This document shows, in pieces, positions 252-7,305 of a DNA stretch of 7,471 nt; the stretch's first letter is position 1, and each line of letters begins with the position of its first letter. The position numbers and the translations under genes are program-made. The stretch covers positions 1 through 7,471 of the forward strand of contig JACQUC010000236.1 in the NCBI GenBank assembly GCA_016210495.1, given 5' to 3'. The notes beneath the pieces are model-generated. The model saw nothing but the letters and a program-made list of their open reading frames with translations, was not told the DNA's origin and ran no database searches. This DNA is from Chloroflexota bacterium (GTDB taxonomy: Bacteria; Chloroflexota; FW602-bin22; JACPRP01).

Positions 252-548
252 GTGACCAAGCATCAGATGTTGGCGGACATCAAGGATACCCTGGGCACGG
301 TGCCCGATTGGATGGTGAGCGTCCCAGACCACGTTCTGGAGCATGAATGGAGCATCATCAAGAACTTCCAGCTCGGCGAGACCGCCATCCCGAACAAGTA
401 CAAAGAGCTCATCGGCCTCGGTGTGGCCGCGCTGTTGGAATGCCCCTACTGCATTCATTTCCACACAGAGGCGGCCAAGTTCTGGGGTGCCAGCCAGGAA
501 GAAATAGCCGAAGCGCTCAAGATACTATCAAGCCAAGCTGATGAATAG
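252..548 (+). CDS. AhpD-like carboxymuconolactone decarboxylase family protein, probably short at the C-terminus
   Basis: This 98-residue protein belongs to the AhpD/carboxymuconolactone decarboxylase superfamily of small all-helical proteins. The diagnostic motif is E-C-P-Y-C-I-H-F-H at about residues 63-71: a CxxC pair followed by a histidine, the thiol peroxidase/disulfide reductase centre of AhpD-like proteins. The preceding helix (PNKYKELIGLGVAALL) is also typical. The start is GTG at 252, with a Shine-Dalgarno GAGGT six bases upstream. Homologues as I know them continue after the EEIAEAL helix with a further helix and a WSTYLNG-like segment. Here that part is absent and the frame closes at TAG within about 10 residues. 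The other two forward frames do not carry the missing segment, so a simple one-base frameshift is not the explanation. The active-site half is intact, so a redox or peroxidase-like role is plausible, but the substrate is unknown. Its expression seems independent of the convergent VOC gene. Confidence 0.8.
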   Translation: MTKHQMLADIKDTLGTVPDWMVSVPDHVLEHEWSIIKNFQLGETAIPNKYKELIGLGVAALLECPYCIHFHTEAAKFWGASQEEIAEALKILSSQADE

Positions 549-1222: not shown

Positions 1223-1263
1223 GGTGTTAGTTGATTACGCCATTGGCAGAGCGCAACGAAGTA

Positions 1264-1368
1264 GTCTGAACCGCAGATTGACGCAGATTACCGGATTATT
1301 CAGGTTACCTGATGGCCGGGCTTCGCGATCCGCGAAATCCCTTAATCTGGTTAATCTGCGGTTCAGAC
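1264..1368. repeat. Dispersed inverted-repeat element, copy 1
   Basis: The element is bounded by a perfect 16-bp inverted repeat: GTCTGAACCGCAGATT at 1264-1279 and its reverse complement at 1353-1368. The interior carries a second GCAGATT (1283-1289) and a small TTCGCG-ATC-CGCGAA hairpin (1322-1336). Bases 1332-1368 match 2544-2580 of copy 2 at 33 of 37 positions. The flanks add a weaker inverted match (AGCGCAACGAAG near 1250-1261 against the complement of about 1385-1397). Strings built from GCAGATT/AATCTGCG units are a familiar class of non-coding intergenic repeat in diverse bacteria. There is no room for a transposase, so it is non-autonomous or a pure hairpin. It sits in the transcribed leader of the Old Yellow Enzyme gene. 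Confidence 0.8.
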
Positions 1369-1443
1369 CTCTTGCGGTTTGGCCGCTTTCGTTCCGCTAG
1401 GCGCTGAAGGGTTCGCGCAGCCTTTTCGACACGGAGGCCGATT

Positions 1444-2481: not shown

Positions 2482-2580
2482 ACCGCAGATTCAGCAGATT
2501 AATGGATTTCGCAGATACCTATGATCTCTGCGGGTGGTCATCTGCGAAATCCCTTAATCAGCGTAATCTGTGGTTCAGAC
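2481..2580. repeat. Dispersed inverted-repeat element, copy 2, between two convergent stop codons
   Basis: This 100-bp imperfect inverted repeat belongs to the same family as 1264-1368. Its core stem is perfect for 13 bp (GGATTTCGCAGAT at 2504-2516 with 2540-2552) and extends to 2497/2559 with a single mismatch, around a 23-nt loop. The outer arms are ACCGCAGATT on the left and the complement of TCTGAACCACAGATT on the right. It touches the TAG of the Old Yellow Enzyme gene (2479-2481) at one end and the TAG of fdhA (2582-2580, minus strand) at the other. RNA from either direction would form a long hairpin, so it may serve as a bidirectional 3'-end structure. It lacks a clear T-tract. Confidence 0.8.
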
Positions 2581-5360
2581 TACTCCCGCTCTACCCGCAC
2601 CGCGCACACCTTCAGCTCGGCGATCTTGGCTACCGGGTCATAAGCGGCGTTGGTCAGAGCGTTGGCAGGCGACTCCGCGAAATGGAAGTCCATGAAGACG
2701 ACCCCCTCAGGAACGACGGACGTCACCGAGGCCGTACCCTGGGCCACACCGCGCCGCGACGTCACCCTTACCCGCTCCCCGTCCGCCACTCCCAACCGCG
2801 AGGCGTCGGCCGGGTGGATCTGCACGTACTCCCTATCCACCAGGGCGACCAGCCCCTTCACCCGCCGGGTCATAGTGCCCGTATGGTAGTGCTGCAGCCG
2901 GCGGCCGGTCGTCAGCAGCAGGGGGTACTCCTCGTCCGGAAGCTCGGCCGCCGGGATGAACTCCACCGGGGAGAAGAGTCCCTTGCCCCGCGTGAACTTG
3001 CCCACGTGCAGGATCGGCGTACCAGGATGATCCGCGGCCGGCACCGGCCACTGCAGTCCGCAATTCTCCAGCCGCTCGTAGCAAATGCCCGCGTAGGATG
3101 GCGTGACACCCGCGATCTCCCGCATGATCTCGGCCGGGTCCCTCTGCCGGAAGCCGTCGGCCAGCTTCGCCGCCTCGCCACCGACTTTCTCGGCCGTGGC
3201 TCGAGCCAACTCCTGAATCACCTGCCAGTCGGGCCGCGCCTGGCCAACGGGATCGATCGCCTTGCGCACCCGCTGCACCCGCCGCTCGGTGTTGGTGATC
3301 GTCCCGTCCTTTTCGGCGAACGACGTCCCCGGCAATACCACATCGGCCAACTGCGCCGTTTCCGTGAGGAAGATATCCTGCACCACGAGGAAATCCAGCG
3401 ACTCCAGGACATCGCGCAGATAATTGACGTCGGGTTCGGAAACCAAAGGGTTCTCCCCGAAGATGTACATCGCCTTGATCTGGCCGGCCCCGACGGCCCT
3501 GATCATCTCCGGCATGGTCCTGCCGGGCTCCGACGGGAGCCGGCAGCCCCAGGCTTCCTCGAACCTGGCCCGGAGGGCGTCCGACGCCACCTGTTGGTAG
3601 GCCGTGTAGACGTCCGGCAGCGCACCCATATCGCAGGCCCCCTGGACGTTGTTCTGGCCGCGCAGGGGGTTCACACCCGAGGAGGGCTTGCCCAGGTTGC
3701 CGGTGAGCATCGCCAGGTTGGCGATGGCCTTCACGTTGTCGGTGCCGGTGGTGTGCTGGGTGATCCCCATCGTGTACAGGATGCTGGAAGCACGCCCCAG
3801 CGGGCTCGGTGCGCGCCGCGGGAAGGTTTCTTCGCACTGCGCGCCCGGCGCATCGCGCTCCCCGCCGGTGGCGTACAGGTAGGCGGCGCGCTCGATCTCC
3901 TCGACGGGAACGCGGGTGAGCCTGGCCACCAGGTCCGGAGTGTACCTCTCCACCGTCCCGCGAAAGGCCTCAAAACCCTCGGTTCGCTCCTCGACGAACG
4001 CCCTATCGTCGAGCCCCTCGCGCACGATGACGTGAGCGATGCCGTTCAGGAGCGCCGCGTCGGTCCCCGGACGCAGGCGCAGCCAGAGGTCGGCGATTCG
4101 GCAGAGGTCGATCTCCTTGGGGTTCACGACGATCAGCTTCGCACCCTTCTGGCGCACTGCCTTCCTGACCTGCAGGCCGATGACGGGATGGGTTTCCGTG
4201 GTGTTGCTGCCGATGACCAGCAGACAACCGGCGTCCTGAATCTCGCCGATGCTGTTGGTCATCGCGCCGCTGCCGAATGTCGTGACCAGACCGGTCACCG
4301 TCGGACTGTGTCAAACACGGGCACAGTGGTCCACCGAGTTGGTGCCCATCACCGCCCTCGTGAACTTCTGGAAGAGGTAGTTCTCCTCGTTCGTGCCCTT
4401 GGCCGAGGCGAGGGCCGCGAACGGCGCTCCGCCGTCTCCACCCGGTCGCGCGTGCTCTGCAAGCCTGGTGGAGATCCTGTCCAGCGCCTCCTCCCAGCTT
4501 GACTCCACCAGCACACCACCCTTGCGGATCAGCGGCTTGGTGAGCCGATCCGGATGGCCGATGAACTCCACGCCGAAACGGCCTTTGACGCACAGGGAGC
4601 CGCGATTCACCGGGCTGGACGGGTCGCCCTCGGAGCCCACGACCTTGGATCCCCGCACCAGCAGTTTGATGCCGCACCCCACGCCGCAGTAGGGGCACAC
4701 CGTCTTCACTTTGCCGGTGGGCTGCCGGTAGCCCTTCATGGAAATGGCACCCACCGGGCACTTGGCCTCGCACTAGCCGCAGCTCTCGCAGAGGGAGTTG
4801 ATGATGGGCTGGTCCATGTAGGTGCCGATCTTGGTGGCGAAGCCACGGTTCACGAAGTTGATGGCCCCGAGCCCCTGCACCTCGTCGCACACCCGCACAC
4901 ACTTAGCGCACAGGACGCATTTATTCATGTCGAAGCTCAAGAACGGGTTGGAGTCGTCCACCGGCAGGCCCCGATTGGTCTTGGGAAATGCGTTCCGTCG
5001 CGCCCCCACGAAGGCAGCCACCGTCTGGAGCGAGCAGCGAGTGTTCTTGGTACAGGTCAGGCAGTCGTCCGGGTGGTCCGACAGCAGCAGCTCGACGATG
5101 GTGCGGCGGGTCGTCTCCACCAGGTCGGTCTCCGTCTTCACCACCATGCCGTCGGCCACGGGTACCGTGCATGACACGGGGAGTCCCCGCATCCCCTCGA
5201 TCTCCACTACGCACAGCCGGCAGGCTCCATATGGTCGTAGGTCGGGATCGGCGCACAGGTTAGGAATGTACACGCCCGCTGCCAGGGCGGCTTCCAGCAC
5301 CGTCATGCCTGGGCGGGCCTCTATCTTCTTACCATCAATGGTCAGGCTGAGTGCAGACAA
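2580..5360 (-). CDS. fdhA: Formate dehydrogenase catalytic subunit, selenocysteine-containing, with NuoG-like N-terminus; interrupted by one in-frame TAG
   Basis: One continuous frame of 927 codons (about 926 residues) encodes the Mo/W-bis-MGD subunit that interconverts formate and CO2. The N-terminus is NuoG-like: a [2Fe-2S] domain (Cys36, 47, 50, 64), a His-Cys [4Fe-4S] site (His96, Cys100, 103, 109) and a two-cluster ferredoxin domain (Cys148, 151, 154, 158; Cys191, 194, 197, 201). The catalytic part has its own [4Fe-4S] site (CPYCGVGC, Cys222, 225, 229; Cys257) followed by Lys259. TGA codon 350 (CARV-U-HSPTV) is selenocysteine, with His351 next and Arg567 in PLRGQNNVQG; these correspond to Sec140, His141 and Arg333 of E. 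coli FdhF. The C-terminal molybdopterin dinucleotide-binding domain is complete. Codon 196 is TAG, between Cys194 and Cys197, and would truncate the protein unless read through or a sequence error. The start is TTG at 5360-5358, behind AAGGAGG that abuts the fdhB stop; the gap is 13 bp. A loop of about 24 residues (about 499-523) looks inserted. An annotation split into three ORFs would be wrong for the TGA. Confidence 0.9.
4282..4298 (-). promoter_or_regulatory. Bacterial SECIS element (selenocysteine insertion hairpin) in fdhA
   Basis: Read on the minus strand, GTGACC-GGTCT-GGTCAC forms a perfect 6-bp stem capped by a GGUCU loop. It begins 12 nt after the in-frame TGA, with 18 nt between the TGA and the loop. 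In E. coli fdhF, SelB recognises a stem-loop just downstream of the UGA whose apical loop includes GGUC. The loop sequence and the spacing seen here match that established pattern. Although the hairpin is coding (TVTGLVT), the codons chosen produce exact complementarity, which supports selection for structure. Confidence 0.85.
4311..4313 (-). other. In-frame UGA selenocysteine codon of fdhA (codon 350)
   Basis: The minus-strand codon TGA sits between CARV and HSPTV, exactly where Sec140 lies in E. coli FdhF (CARV-U-HGP). The same frame continues with unmistakable formate dehydrogenase sequence on both sides, so this is not a frameshift. The SECIS-like hairpin follows at 4298-4282. The organism must carry selA, selB, selC and selD elsewhere; none is in this window. 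Confidence 0.93.
4773..4775 (-). other. In-frame TAG within the second ferredoxin motif of fdhA (codon 196)
   Basis: The minus-strand codon TAG lies in C-E-S-C-G-TAG-C-E-A-K-C-P, inside one [4Fe-4S] ligand set. Family members usually have Gln here (CGQC), and CAG to TAG is a single C-to-T change (plus-strand base 4775, a instead of g). Reading continues in the same frame on both sides with conserved sequence. Three other genes in the window (AhpD-like, Old Yellow Enzyme and fdhA itself) end with TAG at sensible protein ends, so a genome-wide reassignment of TAG is unlikely. Confidence 0.9.
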
Positions 5361-5373
5361 TGCGGCTCCTCCT

Positions 5374-7305
5374 TCAATACCGGATCACGGCGGCAAACTT
5401 GCATACGTCGTAGCAGGAGCCGCACTTGATGCATTTGGGTTGGTCGATGGTATGGACGATCTGCTTCGCTCCCTGGATGGCATCCGAGGGGCAGTTCCGC
5501 AGGCACACCATGCAGCCATTGCACTTCTCAGGATCGATCTCGAAAGTCAGCAGGGCGGAGCACACTCCAGCCGGGCATTTCTTCTCGAGCACGTGCGCCT
5601 CGTACTCATCTCGGAAGTACCGTAGCGTGCTGAGCACCGGGTTCGGCGCCGTCCCCCCCAGAGCGCAGAGAGACCCGGCCGAAACGGCCCTGCCCAGCTC
5701 CTCCAGCCTGTCTAGGTCCTGCGGCTCTCCCCTGCCCTCGGTGATGCGCACCAGCACGTCCAGCATCTGTTTGGTGCCCAGCCGGCAGGGAACGCACTTG
5801 CCGCAGGACTCGGACTGCGTAAAGGTAAGGAAGAACCGCGCCACGTCCACCATGCAGGTATCCTGGTCCATTACCACCAGGCCGCCGCTGCCCATGATCG
5901 CGCCCACCCTGGCTAGGCTCTCGAAGTCGATGGGGGTATCCAGCAGAGAGGAAGGAAGACACCCTCCCGAAGGACCGCCGGACTGGGCCACCTTGAACTC
6001 CTTGCCGTTCACGATACCGCCACCGATGTCGAAAACCACCTCCCGCAGCGTGATGCCCAGTGGCACCTCCACCAGGCCCGGCCGGTTTATCTTGCCGGTC
6101 AGAGCGAACGTCTTGGCGCCCTTGCTCTTCTCGGTGCCCATTGCGGCGTACCAATCGGCACCTTTCACCATTATGGCCGGCACGCTCGCCAGGGTTTCGA
6201 CGTTGTTGATGGTGGTGGGCTTGCCCCACAGCCCCGCCTGGGCAGGGAAAGGCGGCCTCTGGCGCGGCATGCCCCGCTTGCCCTCGATGGACGCGAGCAG
6301 GGCCGTCTCCTCCCCGCAGACGAAGGCGCCGGCGCCCTCCTTGATCTTAATGTGCAGCGAGAAATCGGTGCCGAAGAGTCGATCTCCCACGACGCCATTT
6401 CTCTCCGCCTGGGCGATGGCTAGCTTGAGTCGCTCGATGGCCAGCGGGTACTCCGCCCGGCAGTAGATATAGCCCTCGCTCGCGCCGATAGCGTAGGCGG
6501 CGATCGCCAGCCCTTCCAGCACCGAGTGGGGATCACCCTCCAGGACGCTGCGGTCCATGAAAGCGCCGGGGTCCCCCTCGTCGGCGTTGCAGACCATGTA
6601 TTTCTGCTCCCCGGGCACCTTGTGGCAAAACTCCCACTTCAGGCCCGTGGGGAAGCCGGCTCCGCCGCGCCCTCGCAGCCCAGATCCCTTGATCTGGTCG
6701 ATGACCTGCACCGGCGTCATCTGCGTGAGGGCTCTATGTAGCGAAAAGTAGCCGTCGTTGGCGATGTAGTGGTGGATGCTGGTGGGGTCGATCAGCCCGC
6801 AGTTGCGCAGCGACACCCGCCGCTGTCCCTTCATCACCGTGAGGTCCTCGAAGCGGGGAATGCCGTCCATACTCTCGCTGCCGATTACCGCCATCGCCAG
6901 GTCCGCCAGCGGCTTCCCTCCAACAACGTGGCCCTCGATTATCTTAACCGCCGCTTTGGGCGTGACCGCACCGTAGCAAATGCGCGGCTGGCCAGGCATC
7001 ACCACGTCCAGCAACGGCTCGGCGTAGCAGACGCCAATGCAGCCGACCGCGCTGATGTCCGCGTCCACCCCGCGTTTCTCAAGCGTCTCCCGTACGGCCG
7101 TCTCGACGTGCTTCGCCCCCGCCGCTATCCCGCACGTGCCCATTCCCAGAAGGATGCGGGGCTTCCGGCTGGCTTGCAGTTGCTCCCACAGCGCTCGTGA
7201 CTCCGCCTGCAAAACCCCGAAGGGCAGCGGCCCCGCTCCAGCGCCGTTGCCCACCGTATCCTTCCGCCCGGCCCAATCTCCCAATATCGCTGTGTCGGCC
7301 ATCAT
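5374..7305 (-). CDS. fdhB: NuoF-like NAD(H)/FMN-binding iron-sulfur subunit of formate dehydrogenase
   Basis: This 643-residue diaphorase subunit should pass electrons between FdhA's iron-sulfur clusters and NAD(P)+ through FMN. Domains in order: a thioredoxin-like [2Fe-2S] module (about 48-130; Cys58, Cys89, Cys93); the complex I 51-kDa core, with the FMN/NADH glycine-rich loop GLRGRGGAGFPTG (209-221), NADEGDPGAF (240-249) and GAGAFVCGEETAL (324-336); a SLBB-type segment around 400-450; the N3-type [4Fe-4S] site ESCGKCVPCR (Cys501, 504, 507) with Cys547; and a C-terminal 2x[4Fe-4S] ferredoxin (Cys595, 598, 601, 605 and Cys625, 628, 631, 635). This architecture is shared with HydB/HndC of NAD-linked and bifurcating hydrogenases; pairing with fdhA assigns it to formate dehydrogenase. 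The ATG at 7305 has AGGAG six bases upstream and an adjacent second ATG. fdhA starts 13 bp after its TGA. No separate NuoE-like gene is visible in the 166 bp upstream. The frame is complete, with no lesion. Confidence 0.93.
   Translation of the reverse strand: MMADTAILGDWAGRKDTVGNGAGAGPLPFGVLQAESRALWEQLQASRKPRILLGMGTCGIAAGAKHVETAVRETLEKRGVDADISAVGCIGVCYAEPLLDVVMPGQPRICYGAVTPKAAVKIIEGHVVGGKPLADLAMAVIGSESMDGIPRFEDLTVMKGQRRVSLRNCGLIDPTSIHHYIANDGYFSLHRALTQMTPVQVIDQIKGSGLRGRGGAGFPTGLKWEFCHKVPGEQKYMVCNADEGDPGAFMDRSVLEGDPHSVLEGLAIAAYAIGASEGYIYCRAEYPLAIERLKLAIAQAERNGVVGDRLFGTDFSLHIKIKEGAGAFVCGEETALLASIEGKRGMPRQRPPFPAQAGLWGKPTTINNVETLASVPAIMVKGADWYAAMGTEKSKGAKTFALTGKINRPGLVEVPLGITLREVVFDIGGGIVNGKEFKVAQSGGPSGGCLPSSLLDTPIDFESLARVGAIMGSGGLVVMDQDTCMVDVARFFLTFTQSESCGKCVPCRLGTKQMLDVLVRITEGRGEPQDLDRLEELGRAVSAGSLCALGGTAPNPVLSTLRYFRDEYEAHVLEKKCPAGVCSALLTFEIDPEKCNGCMVCLRNCPSDAIQGAKQIVHTIDQPKCIKCGSCYDVCKFAAVIRY

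What the first reader, a model, noticed from the sequence alone, without database searches (positions are those of the whole stretch)
4773..4775. Amber TAG inside a [4Fe-4S] cysteine motif of the same selenoprotein
CESCG-TAG-CEAKC breaks one iron-sulfur ligand set in two, so making two separate polypeptides would destroy the cluster. The rest of the 927-codon frame is intact, with no other lesion and a preserved Sec/SECIS, which argues against long-standing pseudogene decay. Options are: recent CAG-to-TAG mutation, sequencing or assembly error, amber suppression giving Gln, or (least likely) pyrrolysine. One gene carrying both a recoded UGA and a functional UAG would be very unusual.
Basis: partly seen in the sequence, partly recalled or inferred. 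Interest (0 to 1): 0.75.

Follow-up and report, generated by a model that had tools for sequence, protein, structure and literature searches.

The report
Nonsense codon in formate dehydrogenase gene
A bacterial formate dehydrogenase gene carries a stop codon that looks like a single recent C-to-T change, or a sequencing error, at a position where its nearest relatives have glutamine; this is ordinary, and nothing found suggests that the stop is read as an amino acid.

Summary
On the minus strand, fdhA (5360-2580, formate dehydrogenase alpha with a NuoG-like N-terminus) has an in-frame TAG at codon 196 (4773-4775), between the 2nd and 3rd Cys of the second ferredoxin-type 4Fe-4S motif. It also has a Sec UGA at codon 350 with an Rfam SECIS_3 match. 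No other in-frame stop interrupts it. In 24 of 24 nearest relatives the residue is Gln. The closest genome found (G088) has CAG, and its DNA matches the window at 38 of 39 bases around the codon, the one difference being C to T. TAG stands here in 0 of 80 genome loci. The window shows no excess of changes at conserved sites over its three nearest genomes, so a lesion, if real, is young. Among relatives, PylS passes its cut-off in 0 of 400, RF1 in 29 of 29, and none of 91 ordinary tRNAs of three genomes has a CUA anticodon. Three of the window's five genes end in TAG. The organism's own genome and reads are not held. Verdict: a private C-to-T nonsense change or a sequencing/assembly error, not separable here. 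Recoding is unlikely.

The parts
2580..5360 (-). fdhA, formate dehydrogenase alpha subunit with NuoG-like N-terminus, 927 codons including TAG 196, Sec UGA 350 and a terminal TAG; TTG start preceded by AAGGAGGAG
   Evidence: translation; TIGR01591 791.7 bits; Pfam domains; start region
4773..4775 (-). in-frame TAG, codon 196, between the 2nd (C194) and 3rd (C197) Cys of the second ferredoxin-type 4Fe-4S motif
   Evidence: Gln in 24 of 24 nearest relatives; CAG in L111/G088
4311..4313 (-). TGA, codon 350, selenocysteine codon
   Evidence: TGA at the same codon in 54 of 80 genome loci, Cys codons in 26
4258..4316 (-). bacterial SECIS element overlapping and following the UGA
   Evidence: Rfam RF01989 SECIS_3, 65.8 bits
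4776..5360 (-). 195-residue piece upstream of the TAG: 2Fe-2S domain, NADH-G cluster and incomplete dicluster ferredoxin domain; expected truncated product
2583..4754 (-). possible re-initiation product from GTG 4754 (724 residues with Sec), which passes the Fdh-alpha cut-off alone; a GAGG ends 11 bases before the GTG but is part of codons for the conserved CEAKC stretch
   Evidence: TIGR01591 793.2 bits over cut-off 666.25; sequence
5374..7305 (-). NuoF-like NADH-binding partner subunit upstream of fdhA, open frame of 643 residues
   Evidence: TIGR01959 nuoF_fam 502.7 bits, under its cut-off 558.65; NF010120 399.6 over 389; Pfam Complex1_51K, NADH_4Fe-4S

Best explanation
The TAG is a single C-to-T change of an ancestral CAG (Gln) codon in an otherwise intact, selenocysteine-encoding formate dehydrogenase gene of an uncultured bacterium, probably of the Chloroflexota. 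It is either a sequencing/assembly error or a private, recent nonsense allele. If it is real, it acts as a plain stop: the ribosome ends after 195 residues, the dicluster ferredoxin domain lacks C197 and C201, and the Mo/Sec catalytic part is not made from the normal start. Shown: one base differs from the nearest genome's local sequence, Gln in the near clade, no other stop and no excess of changed conserved sites, and no UAG-decoding machinery in the relatives searched. Inferred: that it terminates in this organism, that it is young or artefactual, and the phylum. I cannot tell error from mutation without reads.
For: Gln at this column in 24 of 24 nearest relatives (69-80% identity); 23 of these 24 proteins end in CAR plus one residue, just before the Sec site. 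L111 (G088; 66% by the genome search, 63% by tblastn) has CAG, and over codons 189-201 its DNA equals the window at 38 of 39 bases, the difference being C to T. 0 of 80 genome loci have TAG here. The match rows for 91 of 400 phylum genomes show no in-frame TAG (at most two candidates scored per genome); the one TAA (G325) lies before the real gene start. None of the 120 listed of 3809 hits to the 195-aa piece ends at CESCG. Decay is not raised: 17 of 287 conserved sites changed, against 21, 20 and 16 of 286 in L111, L112 and L113. Differences from L111 stay concentrated at third codon positions after the TAG. RF1 in 29 of 29 class genomes; three of five window genes end in TAG.
Against: The organism's own genome is not held, so its tRNAs, PylS and RF1 were not examined; machinery evidence is from relatives, the nearest three at 60-66% FdhA identity. 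The tRNA survey followed RF00005 matches and did not show the tRNA-Sec that RF01852 finds in two of the three genomes, so an odd tRNA could be missed. The site tolerates many residues in the wider family, so readthrough inserting almost any amino acid could give a working protein. Absence of decay fits readthrough as well as youth or error. The window's end branch, 0.22, is the third longest of 24 in its clade.
Confidence: 0.87

Rival explanations
1. Real in-frame UAG read through at some rate by a suppressor or near-cognate tRNA (for example tRNA-Gln), giving low but useful amounts of full-length FdhA.
For: No excess decay after the TAG; a permissive residue position; published: conserved in-frame stops in bacterial genes with dN/dS below 1, including a TAG/CAG example (PMC7918605, abstract and passages seen).
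Against: No relative seen shares the TAG (0 of 80 loci; 0 of 24 near relatives; none in the rows). No CUA anticodon among 91 distinct tRNAs of the three nearest genomes, with the limit that odd tRNAs can escape that survey; two tRNA-Gln(CUG) drawn have anticodon stems of at least 5 pairs. RF1 in 29 of 29 relatives. The RNA after the TAG does not fold better than shuffles (z 0.53), but this says little, since the true SECIS gives z 0.03 in the same call.
Confidence: 0.07
2. A natural split: termination at the TAG and re-initiation at GTG 4754 yields a stand-alone catalytic FdhA like the short ones found elsewhere.
For: The 724-residue downstream frame passes the Fdh-alpha cut-off alone, 793.2 over 666.25. 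Short FdhA matches that begin near residue 212-218 exist in other genomes, e.g. G002:C11 and G001:C155. A GAGG ends 11 bases before the GTG.
Against: The GAGG belongs to codons that L111 also has, without a stop, and L111 has GTC where the window has GTG. The N-terminal piece would lose two Cys ligands, yet the six codons between TAG and GTG still encode CEAKCP, as in 22 of the 24 near relatives.
Confidence: 0.04
3. Pyrrolysine inserted at UAG, so that one protein holds both Pyl and Sec.
For: The frame is open when UAG is read; bacteria using both Pyl and Sec, in different proteins, are published (PMC8318568, abstract and passages seen).
Against: PylS over cut-off in 0 of 400 phylum genomes, while 1 of 14 control genomes passes it. 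No Rfam family except SECIS_3 reaches its gathering score in 4250-4850 (that Rfam holds a PYLIS model is recalled). A Gln site in a ferredoxin motif, not a methylamine methyltransferase active site. Three window genes end in TAG.
Confidence: 0.01

Closest known systems
In-frame stop codons in bacterial protein-coding genes (Belinky et al. 2021, PMC7918605; abstract and passages seen)
   Same: A single in-frame TAG at a CAG site in an otherwise conserved bacterial gene, with a purifying-selection pattern around it.
   Different: Their cases were kept only if two or more genomes shared the stop, to reduce sequencing errors; here only one sequence has it.
Selenocysteine-encoding formate dehydrogenase alpha with NuoG-like N-terminus and NuoF-like partner
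   Same: Domain order, Sec UGA and SECIS; L111 also has a NuoF-like gene before fdhA.
   Different: The TAG at codon 196.
Dual Pyl/Sec genetic code expansion in marine Deltaproteobacteria (PMC8318568; abstract and passages seen)
   Same: UGA recoded in formate dehydrogenase.
   Different: There UAG is recoded in methylamine methyltransferases with pyl genes present; no PylS over cut-off was found in 400 relatives here.

Membership tests
Sec-containing formate dehydrogenase alpha | Score over the curated Fdh-alpha cut-off | tested here: met
   TIGR01591 791.7 bits over 666.25, stops read through
Sec-containing formate dehydrogenase alpha | In-frame UGA at the active-site Cys position with a SECIS behind it | tested here: met
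   SelB over cut-off in 3 of 3 and tRNA-Sec in 2 of 3 near genomes
Sec-containing formate dehydrogenase alpha | Unbroken reading apart from the UGA | tested here: not met
   TAG at codon 196
Private nonsense mutation or sequence error | Sense codon in near relatives, one base away | tested here: met
   Gln in 24 of 24; CAG in L111
Private nonsense mutation or sequence error | Reads show either C (error) or T (mutation) | not testable with these tools
   no reads on hand; own genome not held
Conserved functional in-frame stop (readthrough) | Same stop in two or more genomes | tested here: not met
   none; but no sequence of the same species was found (best identity 80%)
Pyrrolysine recoding | pylS (and pylT, pylBCD) in the genome | tested here: inconclusive
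   PylS over cut-off in 0 of 400 relatives; own genome not held; pylBCD not searched, pylT only by the tRNA survey
Genome-wide UAG reassignment | UAG not used as a terminator | tested here: not met
   fdhA, namA and the AhpD-like gene end in TAG; fdhA's TAG comes one residue before L111's stop

The most novel reading that the evidence does not exclude
A bacterial selenoprotein mRNA in which both an internal UAG (read as Gln or another residue by a suppressor or near-cognate tRNA) and a UGA (read as Sec) must be decoded to make one working formate dehydrogenase, the UAG perhaps lowering its dose.
Probability: 0.05. Interest if true: 0.7.

Novelty: already known. Interest (0 to 1): 0.12.

Why it matters
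As it stands it matters little: it is a caution that single nonsense codons in contigs should be checked against reads before being taken for recoding. If the UAG were really read, one gene would need two stop codons decoded in two ways. My paper searches (listings, two abstracts and passages of a few papers seen) showed no natural case of that, which is not proof that none is in print.

Tried and rejected
Own-genome checks: the whole genome is not held, so there is no test of its tRNAs, RF1 or pyl genes. A degenerate DNA pattern for the motif found nothing because I wrote the wrong serine codons; it bears on nothing.

The 195-aa search could not reach 349-aa pieces (upper limit 341), so the third protein search used the 349-aa piece. 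No relative above 80% identity is in its list of 120, so no same-species copy was found with or without the TAG. A 195-aa truncated copy would score too low to appear in that list; one search is the one that could have shown it.

Decay statistic: measured against the 120 full-length proteins themselves, the window looked worse (17 of 287 changed sites, others median 2, maximum 9, 0 of 120 as high). That set is not the window's own clade. With L111, L112 and L113 as controls the excess disappears. Of ten further genome loci in that call, two had 7 changed sites, one 17 and seven 32 to 42. In the 24 near relatives the window deviates at 3 of 117 columns that are invariant in them, codon 196 included; left out one by one, these relatives deviate at 0 to 6, and P0122 at 12, which I did not examine. 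P0126 was left out of the 24 because it ends before the column.

Signals near the TAG: no Rfam family but SECIS_3 over its gathering score, no significant fold (without power, since the SECIS itself gives z 0.03), no promoter- or terminator-like site in 4500-5000. G325's in-frame TAA is upstream of the real start. Near-cognate reading by tRNAs with 4-pair anticodon stems (PMC13092985, passages seen) was considered; two tRNA-Gln of relatives do not have such stems, the third was not seen drawn.

Structure prediction was not run: it cannot show whether the codon is read.

Full report
What is there. The minus strand carries a NuoF-like gene (7305-5374) and, after 13 bases, fdhA (5360-2580). fdhA starts at TTG behind AAGGAGGAG and reads 927 codons with three stop codons: TAG 196 (4773-4775), TGA 350 (4311-4313) and the terminal TAG. 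The protein is formate dehydrogenase alpha: TIGR01591 791.7 bits over a cut-off of 666.25, with 2Fe-2S, NADH-G, ferredoxin-like, Molybdop_Fe4S4, molybdopterin and dinucleotide-binding domains. Codon 350 is TGA in 54 and Cys in 26 of 80 genome loci, and an Rfam SECIS_3 match overlaps it (65.8 bits). SelB is over its cut-off in 3 of 3 near genomes and tRNA-Sec in 2 of 3. So the selenocysteine reading is sound and the TAG is truly inside the gene.

What the codon used to be. Among the 24 nearest relatives that reach this column, 24 have Gln; 23 of these 24 end just before the Sec site, as gene callers cut selenoproteins. The wider family is mixed: 95 further relatives have Q 51, E 40, R 4; 120 full-length proteins have E 88, Q 30, A 1, H 1; 80 genome loci, the best kept of 593, have E 25, Q 16, N 14, S 14, M 5, A 3, L 2, T 1 and no stop. 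In the closest genome found (G088, locus L111; 66% identity, 63% by tblastn) the codon is CAG, and codons 189 to 201 are the same in DNA at 38 of 39 bases, the one difference being C to T. L112 has GAG and L113 CAA. The ancestral codon was therefore most likely CAG. fdhA contains 25 CAG codons, and 42 single C-to-T or G-to-A changes in it would each make a stop, so hitting one is not remarkable.

Is the gene decaying? The Cys at 36, 47, 50, 64, 100, 103, 109, 148, 151, 154, 158, 191, 194, 197, 201, 222, 225, 229 and 257, Cys in 118 to 120 of 120 full-length relatives, are kept. Cys that more than 100 of the 120 have at 322, 460, 716 and 773 are not; whether the window's own clade has them was not checked site by site. 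Against those 120 proteins the window has changed 17 of 287 highly conserved sites; its neighbours L111, L112 and L113 have changed 21, 20 and 16 of 286. It groups with 23 near relatives at 100/100 support. Its end branch (0.22) is the third longest of those 24, after P0260 (0.27) and P0254 (0.23). Third-position differences from L111 dominate before and after the TAG (37, 44 and 46% against 13 to 30% at the first two positions); with L112 and L113 the contrast is weaker but holds in each segment (45 to 58% against 22 to 38%); GC3 is even at 0.83 to 0.87. A long-dead gene does not fit. A young allele, an error and a read-through codon all remain.

Does the organism read UAG? Its genome is not held. 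In relatives: PylS is over its cut-off in 0 of 400 phylum genomes, 269 of them having only weaker matches (1 of 14 control genomes passes); RF1 is over its cut-off in 29 of 29 class genomes. For G088, G184 and G128, loci were fetched to hold all 94 RF00005 places; ARAGORN reads 91 distinct tRNAs in them, none with a CUA, UUA or UCA anticodon. This survey does not show the tRNA-Sec that RF01852 finds in two of these genomes, so an odd tRNA could escape it. In the window, three of five genes end in TAG (fdhA, namA, AhpD-like) and two in TGA. fdhA's own TAG comes one residue before L111's stop, although L112 and L113 read further. The namA and fdhA stops lie at the edges of copies of an intergenic palindromic repeat, which may have supplied them. 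A genome-wide change of meaning is thus unlikely. Nothing found marks this one TAG: only SECIS_3 passes its gathering score nearby, and the 103 bases from the TAG fold no better than shuffles (z 0.53), a weak test because the SECIS itself gives z 0.03.

Could it be a natural split? The downstream 724-residue frame from GTG 4754 passes the Fdh-alpha cut-off alone, and short catalytic-only FdhA matches exist. But the GAGG before it is part of codons that L111 also has without a stop, and the N-terminal piece would lose C197 and C201. I rate this at 4%.

Is it shared? No TAG in 80 loci; no in-frame TAG in the match rows for 91 of 400 genomes (at most two candidates per genome were scored); none of the 120 listed of 3809 hits to the N-terminal piece ends at this point. 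No sequence of the same species was found: the best listed relative is at 80%.

Whose gene? The phylum searched is that of L005, titled Chloroflexi bacterium, and one near relative (P0126) is named Chloroflexota. G088, G184 and G128, the three best or near-best genomes, share one order of 13 held genomes. Placement in the Chloroflexota is an inference.

Comparison with what is known. Lone CAG/TAG stops in bacterial genes are described (PMC7918605, abstract and passages); that study kept only stops shared by two or more genomes to reduce sequencing errors, and this one is single. Bacteria with both Pyl and Sec are known (PMC8318568, abstract and passages), but in different proteins and with pyl genes.

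Verdict. An ordinary nonsense codon: sequencing error or private mutation, not separable here.

Noticed in passing
window 1259-1373 and 2482-2598: Two related palindromic intergenic repeats (35-nt arms at 2482-2516/2540-2574, 86% complementary; 24-nt arms at 1259-1282/1350-1373, 88%) flank namA; the stop codons of namA and fdhA lie at their edges.
   Followed up: partly
L111 5783-8373 (G088): The NuoF-like gene of the nearest genome holds a stretch of it twice in different frames, probably an assembly duplication.
   Followed up: partly
window 252-548: Small AhpD/CMD-like protein (TIGR00778, PF02627) with a CPYC motif, also matching GSU3128_fam, a family named (seleno)protein, below its cut-off.
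   Followed up: no
codon 196 column across relatives: The residue between the 2nd and 3rd Cys of this ferredoxin motif varies widely across the family (E, Q, N, S, M, A, L, T, R, H) though it is Gln in 24 of 24 near relatives.
   Followed up: yes
window 4395-4397 (codon 322) and codons 460, 716, 773: The window lacks Cys at four columns where more than 100 of 120 full-length relatives have it; at codon 322 it has Gly, where P0123, P0124, P0125 and P0127 have Cys.
   Followed up: no
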